Made by a program: the position numbers and the translations under genes
Assembly (NCBI GenBank): GCA_001917665.1
Contig: MNEL01000020.1
Location: 18,734 to 82,733 of the forward strand
Direction: 5' to 3'
DNA length: 64,000 nucleotides
DNA from: Gemmatimonadetes bacterium 13_1_40CM_69_22
GTDB lineage: Bacteria > Gemmatimonadota > Gemmatimonadetes > Gemmatimonadales > GWC2-71-9
The notes under the pieces: model-generated
What the model was told of the DNA's origin: nothing
Database searches by the model: none
The model's input: the letters and a program-made list of their open reading frames with translations, nothing else
Shown here: one piece after another, positions 4,072 through 12,153 of the stretch
Layout of the letters: every line of letters starts with the position of its first letter
Position numbering within the stretch: the stretch's first letter is position 1

Positions 4072-5139
4072 TCAATCTCCCAGGCTGATCCCCAGGTCGC
4101 GCGCCGTCGCGATGGTATCGGAGTCGAGCGGGACGAGCTTCGGCATGGCGAGCGCCTCCGCAATGGGGATAGGGGCGATGGCGGGGGGTCGCAGCGCGAC
4201 CATCGTCCCGAACTTCCCTTCTGCGATCACGCGTACGGCCGCCGCACCGAACCGCAGGCCCAGCAGGCGGTCGAACGTCGTGGGGCTGCCGCCACGCTGG
4301 AGGTGCCCCAGTACGATCGTGCGCGTCTCCTTGCCCGTCATTTCCTGGATCGAGTTGGCGACCTTGTCGCCGATTCCGCCGAGGCGCTCGTGCTCGGGAT
4401 CGATCAGCGACACGGTGCCGCCCTTCGGTGCCGCTCCCTCCGCGACCACCACGATGCTGAAGTGCCGGCCCTCGGTTTCGCGCCGCTGGATTTTGTCGCA
4501 CACCTTCCTGATATCGAAAGGGATCTCGGGGATCAGGATCACGTCGGCAGACCCGGAGATCCCGGAGTGCAGGGCGATCCACCCGGCGTGGCGCCCCATC
4601 ACCTCCACCACCATGACGCGCTCGTGACTCTCGGCCGTGGAGTGGAGCTTGTCGATGGCGTCGGTGGCGGTCTGGACCGCGGTATCGAAGCCGAACGTGG
4701 AGACGGTGCCACCGACGTCGTTGTCGATCGTCTTCGGCACGCCGACCACCGGGATCCCTTTCTCGAACAGCCGGTGCGCGATGCGCAGCGAGCCATCACC
4801 GCCGATTGCGATGAGGGCGTCGATCCCTTTGGTCCGGAAAGCGGCGATGAGCTCGTCGGTGCGGTCCCGCTCGACCCAACGGCCGTCGGGGAGCTGCTCG
4901 CGCCACCGGAACGGATCGCCGCGGTTGGTGGACCCGAGGATGGTGCCACCGAGGTGTGTGATGCCGCGGACCGCGTTGGCATCGAGCGTCACGACGCGGT
5001 CCTCGTCCAGCAGCCCGTCATAGCCGCGCCGGATACCGACGCACGCCCAGCCGCGGTGGACCGCAGCGAGCACGGCCCCGCGGATCACGGCGTTCAGCCC
5101 CGGGGCGTCGCCGCCGCCGGTGGAGATCGCGATTCTCAA
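4072..5139 (-). CDS. pfkA: 6-phosphofructokinase, mixed G/K type (group III-like)
   Basis: Phosphorylates fructose 6-phosphate in glycolysis. The 355-residue protein has the PFK-A fold signatures: STGGGDAPGLN at the N-terminus, GGDGS (113-117), PKTIDND (135-141), VEVMGRHAGW and LGHLQRGGSP. The residue after the GGD aspartate is Gly, as in ATP-dependent enzymes, but the residue before TIDND is Lys, as in pyrophosphate-dependent ones. This G/K pair is known from ATP-using group III enzymes such as that of Streptomyces coelicolor, so ATP is the more likely donor. The start is TTG at 5139, whose TTGA overlaps the stop of the upstream SelW-like gene, so the two are translationally coupled. Confidence 0.92.
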   Translation of the reverse strand: MRIAISTGGGDAPGLNAVIRGAVLAAVHRGWACVGIRRGYDGLLDEDRVVTLDANAVRGITHLGGTILGSTNRGDPFRWREQLPDGRWVERDRTDELIAAFRTKGIDALIAIGGDGSLRIAHRLFEKGIPVVGVPKTIDNDVGGTVSTFGFDTAVQTATDAIDKLHSTAESHERVMVVEVMGRHAGWIALHSGISGSADVILIPEIPFDIRKVCDKIQRRETEGRHFSIVVVAEGAAPKGGTVSLIDPEHERLGGIGDKVANSIQEMTGKETRTIVLGHLQRGGSPTTFDRLLGLRFGAAAVRVIAEGKFGTMVALRPPAIAPIPIAEALAMPKLVPLDSDTIATARDLGISLGD

Positions 5140-5375
5140 CGCGCCGGCGGCGCCGTCTGCTGAATCAGGCGCAGCACTTCCCCGGGCTCAGCGTGCCGCC
5201 CGAGGGCCTTTTTGGAGAACAGGCGACGCCCGTCGATCTCGACTTCGAACACACCGCCGGAGGACTGGATCAGCTTGACGTCCGCGTGCGGGTAGGCCTT
5301 GCGGATCTCGGCCGCCAGACCGGCGGCCCGAGGCTCGTAGTTTCAGACGACACAGTACTCGATGGTGACGCGCAT
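5136..5375 (-). CDS. SelW/Rdx-type selenoprotein with in-frame UGA (Sec)
   Basis: A 79-residue thioredoxin-fold protein of the SelT/SelW/SelH (Rdx) family, thought to act as a small thiol/selenol redox protein. From ATG 5375 the frame gives TIEYC-V-V-(UGA)-NYEPRAAGLA, then KLIQSSGGVFEVEIDG, RRLFSKK and a short helical end, which is the family along its whole length. The UGA at 5343-5345 is codon 11 and takes the place of the second Cys of the CxxC motif, giving Cys8-x-x-Sec11. A SECIS-like hairpin starts 10 bases after the UGA (separate entry). The ordinary stop overlaps the pfkA start (TTGA). Standard gene callers would miss or truncate it. The alternative, a Cys-to-stop mutation or sequencing error, is made unlikely by the hairpin. 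Confidence 0.88.
5307..5332 (-). promoter_or_regulatory. Bacterial SECIS element of the SelW-like selenoprotein
   Basis: On the minus-strand mRNA, counting the U of UGA as 1, bases 14-16 pair with 37-39, base 17 (G) is bulged, bases 18-24 pair with 30-36, and 25-29 form the loop GGUCU. The E. coli fdhF SECIS has the same GGUCU apical sequence, with a bulged base also at position 17 and its critical G and U at 23-24. Here the loop is shifted by one codon. Ten paired bases plus the matching loop and bulge make chance unlikely. Confidence 0.85.
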
Positions 5376-5488
5376 ACGGGGTGTGGGAGAGCCGGCTCGG
5401 TTCCGTGTAAGGATAGTCGCGCTTGACACGCCACGCCACAGTCCCGAGTTTGCGCGGCATCCACCCCCGAGGATTCAGACCGACCGGC

Positions 5489-7609
5489 ATGAGCATCCTT
5501 CCCCGCCTCAAGGCCTCGCCCGGCGTGCTGGTGCGAACGCTCGTGTCGCTCGGGGCCGTCCTCGCCGTCGTCGCGGCGGTCGCCGCCTACGCCTCCGGAC
5601 GGGCGGTCCTCGGTGCCGGTCTCGGGACCGAGTTCGTCATGCTAGTGGCGATCGGTGCGCTGTCGCGGCGCTACGGGGTGGCGCTCCCCGGCAATGGCTT
5701 TTCTTCTTACATCGTGGGCGTCACGGCGTTCGCTGTGCTCGACCGCGGGTGGGCGTGCGCGGCCCTTGTCGCCCCGACGGCCATGGTCGCGGGCGACCTG
5801 TTGTTGCGGCGGCTGCCGGCCCGCACGGCGCTGGGAAACGCCGCCCATCTCACGGCCGGCACGGCGGTCGTCGGCCTCATGTACGAGCGTCTCGGCGGCC
5901 TCCTGGGTGCCGACGCGCTCGACGCGACGAACCTCGCGCCCCTCGCCGCGCTGCTCGCGCTCCTACCCGTCGTCGTCAACGCCACGTTCTACCTCGAGCT
6001 CGCGCTCGGTCGCTCGCTGGCATGGGTGGACGCGTGGCTCACCGCGCGGTGGGAGACGATCGTGTATGCCTGCTCCGCCGGGCTCGCGCTCGCCTGGCTG
6101 CGCCTCGCCCACGCCGGGCTTGGCCCGGTCGAGACGTTCGTAGCGGGCGCGGTCCTCGCCACGGCGACCGCGACCAGCGTGTACGTCGTCCGGCTCGGGG
6201 TGCGCGCCGACGAACTCGCATTGATCCAAGGGCTCTCGCAGGTCATCGCGCGAGACATCTCGCTCGCGAAGAGCTTCGCGCGCATTCAGGAGCTCACGCG
6301 GCGCCTGGTGCCGTGGGAGCAGATGGGCTTCGCCCGCTACGACTCCCGCACCAACGAAATGGAGCTCGTCGCCGACACCGCGGCCGGCGGCCGGACGAGC
6401 TTTCGCTTCGACGCGAACGCCGGGCTGACCGGCGAGGCAGTCCGGCTACGCCGTCCCGTCGTGGCGCACGCGCTGCGGCCTGACCAGGTCGTCCTCCCTG
6501 GCGAGGAGCGCCCCGGCGCGGAGGTGCTCGTCCCGCTCTATCACGCCGGCCAACTGGTCGGTCTGTGGAGCGTGCGCCACTCCGATCCCCTGATGTACCG
6601 CGAAACCGACGGCGAGGTGCTCGCGCTCCTCGCCCCCCAGCTCGCGCTCATGCTCGCGATCGAGACGTCGGTACAGCCGGTAGTCGGCGCCTCCGAGCGA
6701 ACGACCACGTACATCGGGACCCTCACCGCGACGACGCAGGAGATCCATGCGTCGAGCCAGGAGGTAGCCGCGGCGGCCCAGCGCGCCAGCCACGGCGCGA
6801 AGCAGGCGGCGAGTCTCGTGAGCGCCGTGGCGCGCGAGTCGGATCAGCTCAAGCAGCACGCCGGCGAGGTCGCCGCGGCCGGCGACCAGACGCGCGACTC
6901 GGGCTCCGCGATGGAGAAGACCACCGACAAGGTCCGCCTCGCGACCGAGACCGCCGTCCGCCGCCTCACGGACCTCGGGGTGACGACCGAGCACAGCGCG
7001 TCCGAAGTGCGGCGGCTGCGCGACGTCGCCGAGCAGGTGGAGAAATTCTCGGAGACGATCGGGTTCATCGCGAACCAGACCAATCTGCTCGCTCTCAACG
7101 CTACGATCGAGGCGGCGCGTGCCGGCGTGCACGGCCGCGGTTTCGCCGTCGTGGCCGACGAGGTGCATAAGCTCGCGGAAGCAAGCGGGCGCGAGGCCCG
7201 GGCCGTCGGCCGGTCGGCGCAGGACACGCGCGGAGCTCTCGACCGCGCCGCCCAGCTGCTCGAGGGGCTCCGCGAGGACCTGACCGAGGTCGTCCGGGGC
7301 TCGTCCGAGTGGGTGTCGGACCTGAGCCACATCGCCGAGGCAGCCTCCAGCACCGCCCGGGCGGGGAAGCGCGTGGCGGAACTCGCGCGCGGCATCGCGG
7401 CGCTGTCGGGCCGGATCAGCGCGGCGCTCGAACAGGCGAAGGCCGGCGCCCAGTCGTCGAGCACGGAGGCGGAGGCCGTGGCGGCCGCAGCGGCGGAGCA
7501 GCTCAAGGCCATTGAAGCCCTCACCCACGGCGCCACCGAGCTGGCGCAGCTCGCCGACAACCTTGCGAAAGCGGTGCGCTTCGTCCGGGGGGAGAACGGC
7601 CATCCGTAG
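5489..7609 (+). CDS. Methyl-accepting chemotaxis-type transducer with membrane and GAF domains
   Basis: A 706-residue signal transducer from the ATG at 5489. Residues about 15-215 form five to six hydrophobic helices, an integral-membrane sensor rather than the usual periplasmic loop. A GAF-like domain follows (about 240-395). The C-terminal half is the methyl-accepting coiled coil; the kinase-contact hairpin is canonical ([20 protein letters not shown], then [16 protein letters not shown]). Such a protein would report a membrane or cytoplasmic ligand to a CheA kinase. No che genes are in this window, so the partner is elsewhere. An in-frame ATG/GTG further upstream would add residues without hydrophobic or domain character, so 5489 is preferred. 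Confidence 0.88.
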
Positions 7610-9107: not shown

Positions 9108-10550
9108 GTGCGCACACTGGCGATCCTGGGAATGGCGCTTACCTGCGGCGTCGGCCGCCTCGGCGCGCAGCGGGCGCATCAGTTCGAACTCGGCGCGCTC
9201 GGCTCCTTCACGCGCTACGACAGGGCGTTCGGCCTCGAGGATCGCGTCGGCGGCGGCGCGCGTCTCGGCTACTTCTTCACTGACGTCGTCGGCGCGGAGC
9301 TCGACGTCGGGTACCAGGACTTGAGCCCCAGGACGGGCAGCGCATCGCCCACCCTCGCGCTCGGCGGCGCGAGCCTGATCCTCAATTTCGGGAGCCCGCG
9401 CCAGCTGTTCTACATCCTCGGCGGCTACTCGCGCCTCGACTTCGAGAAGACGGCGCCGTACCGCTTCACCGACGACGCCGTCCACGGCGCGATCGGCGAT
9501 CGGCTGTTCCTGGGCGACCGCGCCGCGCTGCGGCTCGAGGTGCGCGCCATCTACGCGCCCAACACCGGATTCGCGCGCGCCTTGTGGGCCGGTCACTTGG
9601 TCGGCTCGCTCGGCCTCTCCCTCTTCACCGGCGGGGGGCTGCTCCCGGACGAGGATCACGATGGCGTCCCCGACAAGCGCGATACCTGCTCCAACACGCC
9701 GCTGGGCGCAACGGTCGACGTGCACGGCTGCCCGACCGACGCCGATCATGACGGCGTGTCCGACGGACTCGATCAGTGCCCCGGCACGCCCGCCGGGGCT
9801 CGGGTGGACGCGAAGGGCTGTCCGATCGACTCGGACCACGACGGCGTGTACGACGGGCTCGATCAGTGCTCCAACACGCCCGCCGGCGCGCATGTAGACG
9901 CCAAGGGCTGCCCCACCGACGCCGACGGCGACGGCGTTCCCGACGGAATCGACCAGTGCCCCAACACCCCCGCGGGCGCGACCGTCGACCCGGCCGGCTG
10001 CCCCCTCGATACGGACAAGGACGGCGTGCCGGACGGCATCGACAAATGCCCGAACACACCGCTGGGCACGGAAGTGGACAGCACCGGGTGCCAGCGCTTC
10101 AAGGACTCCGACGGCGACGGAGTCGACGACACCAAGGACAAGTGTCCCGGCACTCCGCCCGGCTCGCGAGTGGATGCCTTCGGCTGCGTGATCCTGTTCA
10201 CGCCGGAGCGGACACCGGTGATCCTGCGGGGGGTGACGTTCGAGACGGGCAGGGCGGTCCTCCAGCTCGAGTCCTTCACTGTGCTCAACATCGTCGCCCA
10301 GTCGCTGGTGGCGAATCCCGCCATTCGCATCGAGATCGCGGGATATACCGACGGCACGGGCTCCGCGGCGACGAACCTGCGGCTCTCGCAGGCCCGCGCG
10401 GAGGTGGTGCGCGCCTACCTGGTGAGCCGAGGGGTCTCGCCCACCCGCATGATCGCGCGGGGCTACGGCGCGACCAATCCGATCGCCGTGAACACCACTC
10501 CCGAAGGTCGAGCGCAGAACCGGCGGGTGGAGCTGCACCAGTTACCCTAG
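9108..10550 (+). CDS. OmpA-family protein with six thrombospondin type-3 repeats
   Basis: Outer-membrane protein of 480 residues. A signal peptide is followed by an N-terminal beta-barrel-like region (about residues 25-175, ending strands in Phe). Six calcium-binding TSP3 repeats follow (DxDxDGVxDxxDxC ... GCP units, about 180-365), then a C-terminal OmpA domain that binds peptidoglycan (ending in IEIAGYTDGTGS and QARAEVVRAYLVSRGVSP, RGYGATNPI, NRRVELH). Each repeat carries two Cys that can form a disulfide. It spans barrel to cell wall with a stiff Ca-loaded linker. The start is GTG 9108. The next gene, 10 bases on, is its paralogue. Confidence 0.9.
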   Translation: MRTLAILGMALTCGVGRLGAQRAHQFELGALGSFTRYDRAFGLEDRVGGGARLGYFFTDVVGAELDVGYQDLSPRTGSASPTLALGGASLILNFGSPRQLFYILGGYSRLDFEKTAPYRFTDDAVHGAIGDRLFLGDRAALRLEVRAIYAPNTGFARALWAGHLVGSLGLSLFTGGGLLPDEDHDGVPDKRDTCSNTPLGATVDVHGCPTDADHDGVSDGLDQCPGTPAGARVDAKGCPIDSDHDGVYDGLDQCSNTPAGAHVDAKGCPTDADGDGVPDGIDQCPNTPAGATVDPAGCPLDTDKDGVPDGIDKCPNTPLGTEVDSTGCQRFKDSDGDGVDDTKDKCPGTPPGSRVDAFGCVILFTPERTPVILRGVTFETGRAVLQLESFTVLNIVAQSLVANPAIRIEIAGYTDGTGSAATNLRLSQARAEVVRAYLVSRGVSPTRMIARGYGATNPIAVNTTPEGRAQNRRVELHQLP

Positions 10551-10560
10551 AGGAGCCGAC

Positions 10561-12153
10561 ATGAGACGGTTCGCGGTGCTGGCGACATTGCTCACGCTCC
10601 CGACGGGACGCCTCGCGGCGCAACACGCCGGGCAGTTCGAGGCCGGTGCGTTTGGCTCCTACACGCGCTACGACGCCGCCTTCGGTCTTCCCAACAAGCT
10701 GGGTGGCGGCGGACGCCTCGGCTACTTCTTCGGTGACGCGGTCGGCCTCGAGGCCGACGTGCTGTTCCAGCCCCAGTACACCGTGTCGAGCGGTGGGACG
10801 CCCACCACGCTCGAGCCGCTGATCGGCAGCGCCAGTCTGGTCTTCAACGCCGTGCACGGCAGCCGCCTGATGCTCTACCTGCTCGGCGGCTACTCGCTGC
10901 TCGACTTCGGGACGCGGGCCCCGTATCGCTTCACCGACAACGCCATGCACGGCGGCGCCGGCGTGCGGATCTTCCTCACCCAGCGGGTCGCGCTGCGGCT
11001 CGAAGGGCGCGGCGTCTACGTGCCCAGCACCAGGTCCGCCTTCGGGCCGACCACGGCTACGCATTTCGTCGCGACGGCCGGCCTTTCGGTCTTCCACCTG
11101 GGCGAGCCGCCGAAGGACTCGGACAAAGACGGGGTGACCGACAAGAAGGACGCCTGTCCCAACACGCCATTGGGCGCGACCGTCGACCCGCGCGGCTGCC
11201 CGACGGACTCCGACCATGACGGCGTGTACGACGGGCTCGACAAATGCCCCAACACACCGGCCGGCGCGACCGTGGACGCCAGCGGCTGTCCCGCCGACGC
11301 CGACGCTGACGGCGTGCCCGACGGGATCGATCAATGCCCGAACACGCCGGCGGGCGTGCACGTGGACGCCAAGGGCTGCGCCGTCGACTCGGACGGCGAC
11401 GGCGTTCCCGACGGCGTCGATCAGTGCCCCAACACCCCGGCGGGCGCGACCGTGGACGCCCTGGGGTGCCCGGCGGACGCGGACAAAGACGGCGTGCCGG
11501 ACGGCGTCGATCAGTGCCCCAATACGCCGGTCGGCGCGCTGGTCGACGCGAAGGGTTGTCCGATGGACTCGGACCTGGACGGCGTGCCGGACGGCCTCGA
11601 CAAGTGTCCCAACACTCCCGCCGGGACGCCGGTCGACACCACCGGCTGCCCGCTGCCGCGGCAGGTGATCCGGGACTCCGACGGGGACGGCGTGCCCGAC
11701 GACCGCGACAAATGCCCGAATACGCCGGCCGGCTCGAAAGTGGATGCGAACGGCTGCATCATCCTGTTCCAGCCGGAAATCGTGCCGGGCGCCCCGGGCG
11801 CCGCGCCGGCGCGGCCCACGCTGATCCTGCGCGGGGTGAACTTCGAGTGGGGCCGGTCCGCCCTCACGCGTGATTCCTACGCGGTGCTCGACCAGGTGGC
11901 GGGGTCCCTGATCGCCAACCCTGACATTCAGATCGAGATCGCGGGCTACACCGACAACACGGGATCGGTGCCTCTCAACGTGCGGCTCTCGGAGGCCCGG
12001 GCGGCCTCGGTGCGCGCGTACCTGGCGCGCAAGGGCGTGTCGCCGGGGCGGATGGTGGCGAAGGGCTACGGGGCGAGTGGCTTCATCGCGCCCAACACCA
12101 CGGCGGCGGGCCGGGCGCAGAACCGGCGGGTGGAGCTGCATAAGCTGCCGTAA
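10561..12153 (+). CDS. OmpA-family protein with seven thrombospondin type-3 repeats (paralogue)
   Basis: A 530-residue tandem paralogue of the preceding gene with the same order: signal peptide (ending LAAQ), barrel-like domain, TSP3 repeats and C-terminal OmpA domain (IEIAGYTDNTGSVPLNVRLS, KGYGASGFI, NRRVELHKLP). It has seven repeats instead of six, plus a Pro/Ala-rich insert before the OmpA domain. The repeats are closer to each other than to those of the neighbour, pointing to repeat gain after duplication. A GGAG site lies 8 bases before the ATG. The two genes probably form one transcript ending at the hairpin at 12180-12206. Confidence 0.9.
   Translation: MRRFAVLATLLTLPTGRLAAQHAGQFEAGAFGSYTRYDAAFGLPNKLGGGGRLGYFFGDAVGLEADVLFQPQYTVSSGGTPTTLEPLIGSASLVFNAVHGSRLMLYLLGGYSLLDFGTRAPYRFTDNAMHGGAGVRIFLTQRVALRLEGRGVYVPSTRSAFGPTTATHFVATAGLSVFHLGEPPKDSDKDGVTDKKDACPNTPLGATVDPRGCPTDSDHDGVYDGLDKCPNTPAGATVDASGCPADADADGVPDGIDQCPNTPAGVHVDAKGCAVDSDGDGVPDGVDQCPNTPAGATVDALGCPADADKDGVPDGVDQCPNTPVGALVDAKGCPMDSDLDGVPDGLDKCPNTPAGTPVDTTGCPLPRQVIRDSDGDGVPDDRDKCPNTPAGSKVDANGCIILFQPEIVPGAPGAAPARPTLILRGVNFEWGRSALTRDSYAVLDQVAGSLIANPDIQIEIAGYTDNTGSVPLNVRLSEARAASVRAYLARKGVSPGRMVAKGYGASGFIAPNTTAAGRAQNRRVELHKLP

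What the first reader, a model, noticed from the sequence alone, without database searches (positions are those of the whole stretch)
5136..5375. Hidden selenoprotein: SelW-like protein with UGA and an fdhF-like SECIS
The minus-strand frame is a textbook SelW/Rdx protein except that the second catalytic Cys codon is UGA. The UGA is followed by a stem with a bulge at position 17 and a GGUCU apical loop, the loop sequence of the E. coli fdhF SECIS. Codon, family position and hairpin all agree. Selenoproteins of this family are rarely recognised in this kind of genome because gene callers stop at the UGA.
Basis: partly seen in the sequence, partly recalled or inferred. Interest (0 to 1): 0.93.

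Follow-up and report, generated by a model that had tools for sequence, protein, structure and literature searches.

The report
Hidden SelW selenoprotein upstream of pfkA
This bacterium has a small redox-family gene whose database entry starts only after an internal "stop" codon at its active site; that codon is very likely read as selenocysteine, the same arrangement appears in about half of the sampled genomes of its phylum (Gemmatimonadota), and in many of those the gene lies directly in front of the glycolysis gene pfkA.

Summary
Minus strand 5375-5136 encodes a 79-residue Rdx/SelW protein, MRVTIEYCVVU..., with UGA in place of the second cysteine of CxxC: a predicted selenoprotein of the known bacterial SelW-like family, not a broken gene. 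The genome has tRNA-Sec (81 bits), selA (542 bits) and selD (402 bits, itself with an in-frame UGA). selB was not found in this 71.5%-complete assembly; 39 of 44 same-family genomes with a UGA-type SelW have it. UGA is at this codon in 141 of 147 scored loci (126 of 132 distinct stretches), and in 145 of 298 phylum genomes the SelW match carries one TGA. The hairpin after the UGA meets the four published constraints for bacterial SECIS elements. Its loop is conserved as RNA: 36 of 37 Gly codons there are GGT and 23 of 23 Ser codons AGT, both rare in neighbouring pfkA genes; stem pairs covary. A single-contig relative with no selA or tRNA-Sec match carries TGC and an altered loop. The database entry of this protein is a 60-aa truncation. 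Beyond the finding: pfkA follows selW within 100 nt in 41 of 66 phylum loci, overlapping as TTGA in all five sampled genomes of the window's genus. New member of a known kind.

The parts
5136..5375 (-). selW-like predicted selenoprotein gene (79 aa with Sec at residue 11, CVVU motif; ATG 5375-5373, stop TGA 5138-5136)
   Evidence: dN/dS after the UGA 0.06-0.19 over 60 codons against nine chosen relatives
5343..5345 (-). in-frame UGA predicted to encode selenocysteine (second position of CxxU)
   Evidence: UGA at this codon in 141 of 147 scored loci, the window's own included; TGC in the other 6; 126 of 132 distinct stretches
5307..5332 (-). predicted SECIS hairpin (stem nt 14-24 / 30-39, one G bulged, counted from U of UGA)
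   Evidence: two-sided pair changes across 117 distinct sequences
5317..5321 (-). SECIS apical loop GGUCU; its second G (5320) is invariant in 117 of 117 distinct sequences
4072..5139 (-). pfkA, 6-phosphofructokinase (355 aa, TTG start), next gene downstream
   Evidence: TIGR02483 450.6 bits, cut-off 430.55; the only PF00365 match in this assembly
5136..5139 (-). TTGA: pfkA start codon overlapping the selW stop codon (possible translational coupling)
   Evidence: sequence; TTGA at the same junction in all five genomes of the genus in the sample (L036, L043, L044, L048, L069)

Best explanation
The gene at 5375-5136 (-) encodes an Rdx/SelW-family protein with an in-frame UGA at the second position of its CxxC motif, and this UGA is very likely decoded as selenocysteine through the hairpin that follows it. 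Inferred steps: SelD and SelA make Sec-tRNA-Sec; SelB (not found in this incomplete assembly, present in most same-family relatives) binds the hairpin loop and delivers it to the UGA; the finished protein would act as a small selenol/thiol oxidoreductase of unknown substrate. Shown by sequence: the frame, the codon, the hairpin, conservation of the RNA loop independent of the amino acid, the machinery genes listed, and the pfkA gene overlapping its end.
For: Family: Rdx 74.6 bits, NF041051 101.8, weaker matches to solved Rdx-type chains such as 2fa8 and 2obk. Machinery: tRNA-Sec 81 bits, tca anticodon; selA 542 bits; selD 402 bits with one TGA, read as GAG-U-ACK, the catalytic-Cys position by recall. 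Conservation: 145 of 298 phylum genomes have a SelW match with one TGA; UGA at the exact codon in 66 of 66 of these that I fetched, the window's own included, and in 75 of 77 scored named loci, among them Krumholzibacteriia, Chloroflexi and Pirellulaceae. SECIS: Gly at U+8 is GGT in 36 of 37 and Ser is AGT in 23 of 23, against 9.5% GGT and 5.9% AGT in 46 pfkA frames of the same loci; 46 two-sided pair changes, shuffle mean 11.9, none of 1000 shuffles reaching it. Co-occurrence: selA over cut-off in 135 of 145 UGA-SelW genomes and 85 of 153 others; 9 of those 10 exceptions have a tRNA-Sec at 70-82 bits. Natural control: G129 (one contig, rated 100% complete) has TGC, GCG TTG in place of the loop codons, is not among the genomes with a selA match, and has no tRNA-Sec match above 43.9 bits.
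Against: selB is not found here; the best hit, 92 bits, lies in a frame that I read by eye as IF-2. G002 (99% complete), G076, G121 and G215, the closest relative by SelW (96% identity), also have UGA-SelW without a selB hit over the cut-off. G038 has UGA-SelW but neither a strong selA nor a tRNA-Sec above 45.7 bits. Thermodynamic z-scores of the hairpin are weak. The outer stem pairs 16-37, 17-36 and 18-35 are poorly kept in many sequences, and the pair shuffles do not keep relatedness. Rfam gave no match at 5000-5700. Three database homologues have Arg or Leu at the Sec position (P0018, P0019, P0020). No protein-level evidence was obtainable.
Confidence: 0.95

Rival explanations
1. The UGA is an ordinary stop and the rest is a pseudogene or a separate short protein starting downstream, as the truncated database entries imply.
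For: Database entries for this gene and relatives start after the UGA (6 of the 28 proteins read, for example P0017 60 aa, P0024 60 aa, P0030 57 aa).
Against: The CxxU half is conserved with the rest; dN/dS after the UGA is 0.06-0.19 over 60 codons; synonymous codons of the loop are constrained; Cys-containing full-length homologues exist (14 of 28 read).
Confidence: 0.02
2. The UGA is read as tryptophan or another standard amino acid (code change or readthrough).
For: Five of the 28 proteins read (P0002, P0010, P0022, P0026, P0028) have W here, as a table-4 gene call would produce.
Against: selW itself and many of its homologues end in TGA; tRNA-Sec, selA and selD are present; loop and stem constraints fit SECIS; the codon is Cys in G129, which shows no selA or tRNA-Sec.
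Confidence: 0.02
3. Sequencing or assembly error turning TGC/TGT into TGA.
For: A single-genome observation at first sight; the source is a fragmented assembly.
Against: Same UGA in 141 of 147 scored loci, 126 of 132 distinct stretches.
Confidence: 0.005

Closest known systems
Bacterial SelW-like selenoproteins (CxxU; PMC1794560, PMC2398784, PMC4607533)
   Same: Rdx-type domain, CxxU motif, UGA followed at once by a SECIS hairpin, often missed by annotation (PMC4607533 reports SelW genes missed in Epsilonproteobacteria; passages).
   Different: Here in Gemmatimonadota, and often directly upstream of pfkA; the GOS paper reports Prx/SelW neighbours instead (passages of PMC2398784).
Rdx-family proteins with solved structures (2fa8, 2obk, 2oka)
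   Same: Same family by sequence, E 1.9e-9, 2.9e-5 and 3e-5.
   Different: Known here by name only; their residue at the Sec position was not inspected.
E. coli fdhF SECIS (recalled)
   Same: GGUCU loop, one-base bulge in the 5' arm, short upper stem, by recall.
   Different: The loop lies about three nucleotides further from the UGA here, by recall; not compared by any search.

Membership tests
SelW-like bacterial selenoprotein | Rdx/SelT-W-H domain | tested here: met
   Pfam Rdx 74.6 bits; NF041051 101.8 bits and TIGR02174 61.5 bits, all over their cut-offs
SelW-like bacterial selenoprotein | CxxU motif with UGA at the second position | tested here: met
   CVVU at residues 8-11; TGC or TGT at the first position, TGA at the second in 141 of 147 scored loci
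SelW-like bacterial selenoprotein | Cys-containing homologues aligned at the UGA | tested here: met
   TGC in 6 of 147 scored loci, of which L100 (G129) is of the same subtype and the others are more distant; Cys in 14 of 28 database proteins read
bacterial SECIS (model as worded in the Fig. 2 legend of PMC13188914) | 3-9 nt apical loop with G in its first two positions, 4-16 bp upper stem, 16-37 nt from UGA to loop, MFE <= -7.5 kcal/mol | tested here: met
   5-nt loop GGUCU, 5 bp then bulge, 21 nt spacing, -19.6 kcal/mol; bSECISearch itself was not run
Sec-decoding trait | selC, selA, selD | tested here: met
Sec-decoding trait | selB | tested here: inconclusive
   no match over cut-off in the 71.5%-complete assembly; over cut-off in 39 of 44 same-family UGA-SelW genomes, the window's own among the misses
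SelW-like bacterial selenoprotein | selenocysteine in the protein | not testable with these tools
   needs 75Se labelling or mass spectrometry

The most novel reading that the evidence does not exclude
In this genus selW and pfkA form one translationally coupled unit: ribosomes that read through the UGA end at TTGA and restart on the overlapping TTG of the only phosphofructokinase gene found, so selenium supply sets the rate of glycolytic enzyme synthesis. SelW would be both a redox protein and a selenium gate on glycolysis.
Probability: 0.1. Interest if true: 0.75.

Novelty: new member of a known kind. Interest (0 to 1): 0.42.

Why it matters
It adds a likely selenoprotein, present in about half of the sampled genomes, to Gemmatimonadota. 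In the held library no paper was found that pairs SelW with this phylum: 0 papers for SelW, selenoprotein and Gemmatimonadetes, and 18 and 19 papers pairing the phylum with selenoprotein or selenocysteine, seen as listings only. It shows that several database entries from these genomes lose the active site. The recurrent selW-pfkA junction gives a concrete lead on the substrate or pathway of bacterial SelW, which the 2026 review still calls unknown for the Prx/SELENOW-like gene pairs (passage of PMC13188914), and a testable link between selenium and central carbon metabolism.

Tried and rejected
Shine-Dalgarno strength as a test of selW-pfkA coupling: best anti-SD duplex energy before pfkA averaged -3.8 kcal/mol in 26 junctions with offset of 1 nt or less (the Cys-type L100 included), -2.7 in 16 gapped ones and -4.4 before selW in 70 loci; no support for dependence, inconclusive.

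pfkA adjacency outside Gemmatimonadota: none of the scored loci L131-L182 showed a pfkA motif from 90 nt before to 700 nt after the selW stop; L132 among them is Gemmatimonadaceae.

Other UGA-interrupted genes in the window: a composition scan listed five places; selW was one, and I judged the other four by eye to be ordinary gene starts or wrong frames, without further tests. Rfam at 5000-5700: nothing. Hairpin energy alone: weak.

In one search I left out of the UGA count the three genomes whose SelW rows were not printed (G013, G116, G197) and the three whose listed match had no stop (G129, G052, G196), and out of the selA count six genomes with weak matches (G121, G271, G038, G211, G275, G084), which agrees with the tool's tally of 220 over the cut-off. 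L183 could not be scored. In one search identical 46-mers were counted once (117 distinct of 141). Fifteen of the 77 named loci are identical over 210 nt to an unnamed one. In one search I read 28 of the 120 proteins listed (393 found), mostly the best-scoring. Loci L015-L019 were fetched but not analysed.

Full report
What is there. The minus-strand frame 5375-5136 is a complete Rdx/SelW gene with UGA as its eleventh codon. Rdx scores 74.6 bits against a cut-off of 22.6, NF041051 101.8 against 88. The closest named relatives are metagenome assemblies labelled Gemmatimonadetes or Gemmatimonadota, so I place the window in that phylum. The window is contig C34, bases 18734-82733, of a 2.36 Mb, 60-contig, 71.5% complete genome.

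Machinery. tRNA-Sec: 81 bits, also called by ARAGORN with anticodon tca. selA: 542 bits. selD: 402 bits with one in-frame TGA; its sequence reads HGAG-U-ACK, the position of the catalytic Cys in E. coli SelD (recalled), so SelD looks like a second selenoprotein. selB: not found; the best of five hits, 92 bits against a cut-off of 242, lies in an 884-aa frame that I read by eye as IF-2. The roughly 170-bit hits in about 400-aa frames seen in many relatives, which I take for EF-Tu, are also missing from this assembly, which suggests missing sequence rather than gene loss. Among 50 same-family genomes common to both searches, selB is over the cut-off in 39 of 44 with a UGA-SelW and in 1 of 6 without a counted one (that one, G013, has a SelW match whose row was not printed). 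The five misses are G000, G002, G076, G121 and G215. Of the four other genomes of the genus, G077, G114 and G205 have it and G215 does not.

Conservation of the UGA. 151 of 298 phylum genomes have a SelW match, and the listed match of 145 of them has one TGA. I read 66 of these 145 at codon level, the window's own included: UGA at the aligned codon in all 66. Four further fetched loci, chosen because no stop was reported, all have TGC; one, L100, is of the same subtype and three are a different, more distant Rdx type. Of 78 named loci, 77 could be scored: 75 UGA and 2 TGC (Nitrospira-type). Together 141 of 147; 15 named loci repeat unnamed ones, and 126 of 132 distinct 210-nt stretches have UGA. 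After the UGA the protein evolves under purifying selection: dN/dS 0.06-0.19 over 60 codons against nine chosen relatives.

The hairpin is a SECIS by selection. At U+8 the residue changes between Gly, Ser and Arg, but in 66 phylum sequences the middle base is always G, the third is U in 59 and the first is G or A in 65. Gly is GGT in 36 of 37 and Ser is AGT in 23 of 23, while pfkA frames of the same loci use GGT for 9.5% of Gly and AGT for 5.9% of Ser (naive binomial P about 5e-36 and 5e-29, ignoring relatedness). Over 117 distinct sequences the second loop G is invariant and 46 cells change on both sides of a pair, against a shuffle mean of 11.9 with none of 1000 shuffles reaching it; sliding the partners by 1-3 gives at most 30. 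The shuffles do not keep relatedness. The inner pairs carry most of the signal; the outer ones decay. The geometry meets the bacterial SECIS model (legend read in PMC13188914).

Natural control. G129, a one-contig relative rated 100% complete, has TGC at this codon, GCG TTG (Ala-Leu) where others have the GU loop, is not among the 226 genomes with a selA match, has no tRNA-Sec match above 43.9 bits, and still has pfkA next door. In the protein database, 14 of 28 sequences read have Cys here, and 8 of those 14 have Ala at the loop residue, the other 6 Gly; Ala occurs at that residue in none of the 66 UGA loci. This is the pattern expected when Sec is replaced and the loop is released.

Co-occurrence. 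selA is over the cut-off in 135 of 145 UGA-SelW genomes and in 85 of 153 others. Of the ten exceptions, nine hold a tRNA-Sec at 70-82 bits and one, G038, does not. The 85 genomes with selA but no counted SelW presumably have other selenoproteins (not searched).

Neighbourhood. pfkA starts within 100 nt downstream in 41 of 66 UGA loci and in G129; in 25 of the 66 the start lies from 10 nt before to 1 nt after the selW stop, in 16 of them as the four-base overlap. In the window's genus the junction is TTGA in all five sampled genomes. The PFK is TIGR02483 PFK_mixed, 450.6 bits, and the only PF00365 match in this assembly. In all six genus-g17 loci fetched (L027, L030, L032, L033, L035, L042) no pfkA start follows (L030 runs into a partial PfkA), so SelW does not need it. 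Coupling is a hypothesis; start-site strength gave no support.

Literature. In the part of the GOS table that I saw, SelW-like CxxU is the first and largest family (427 sequences; passages of PMC2398784); it is listed among bacterial selenoproteins in PMC1794560 (passages). Searches for SelW with selenoprotein and Gemmatimonadetes, and for selenoprotein, phosphofructokinase, operon and SelW together, returned 0 papers. The 18 and 19 papers pairing Gemmatimonad with selenoprotein or selenocysteine were seen as listings only. The main text of PMC5029168 names neither SelW nor Gemmatimonad. The library is partial, and the newer name SELENOW was not searched.

Verdict. The new parts are its spread in Gemmatimonadota, the truncated database entries, and the pfkA junction.

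Noticed in passing
L021:1400-2500 (-), G000:C50:57472-58398: The genome's own selD has an in-frame UGA at HGAG-U-ACK, so SelD is a second predicted selenoprotein; hairpins follow the UGA in the predicted fold.
   Followed up: partly
L030 (G262:C172) / L110: The SelW frame runs on into a PfkA lacking its first part, as if fused after a deletion; may be an assembly artefact.
   Followed up: no
P0002, P0010, P0022, P0026, P0028: Database homologues with W at the Sec position, probably UGA translated with table 4 by metagenome gene callers.
   Followed up: no
P0018, P0019, P0020: Homologues with Arg (P0018, P0020) or Leu (P0019) at the Sec position although otherwise SelW-like; error or real change unknown.
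   Followed up: no
window 5409-5429 (-): GTGTCAAGCGCGACTATCCTT upstream of selW: near-identical copies stand upstream of selW in 11 of 12 loci printed, all 11 of the same family; in some the ATG follows the TATC motif closely, as in a leaderless transcript. A divergent methyl-accepting-type frame starts nearby.
   Followed up: no
G038: UGA-type SelW but no strong selA or tRNA-Sec in a 95% complete assembly.
   Followed up: no
window 9108-12153 (+): Two adjacent long frames with repeated D-x-D-x-D motifs and an OmpA-like end, probably paralogous outer-membrane proteins (by eye).
   Followed up: no
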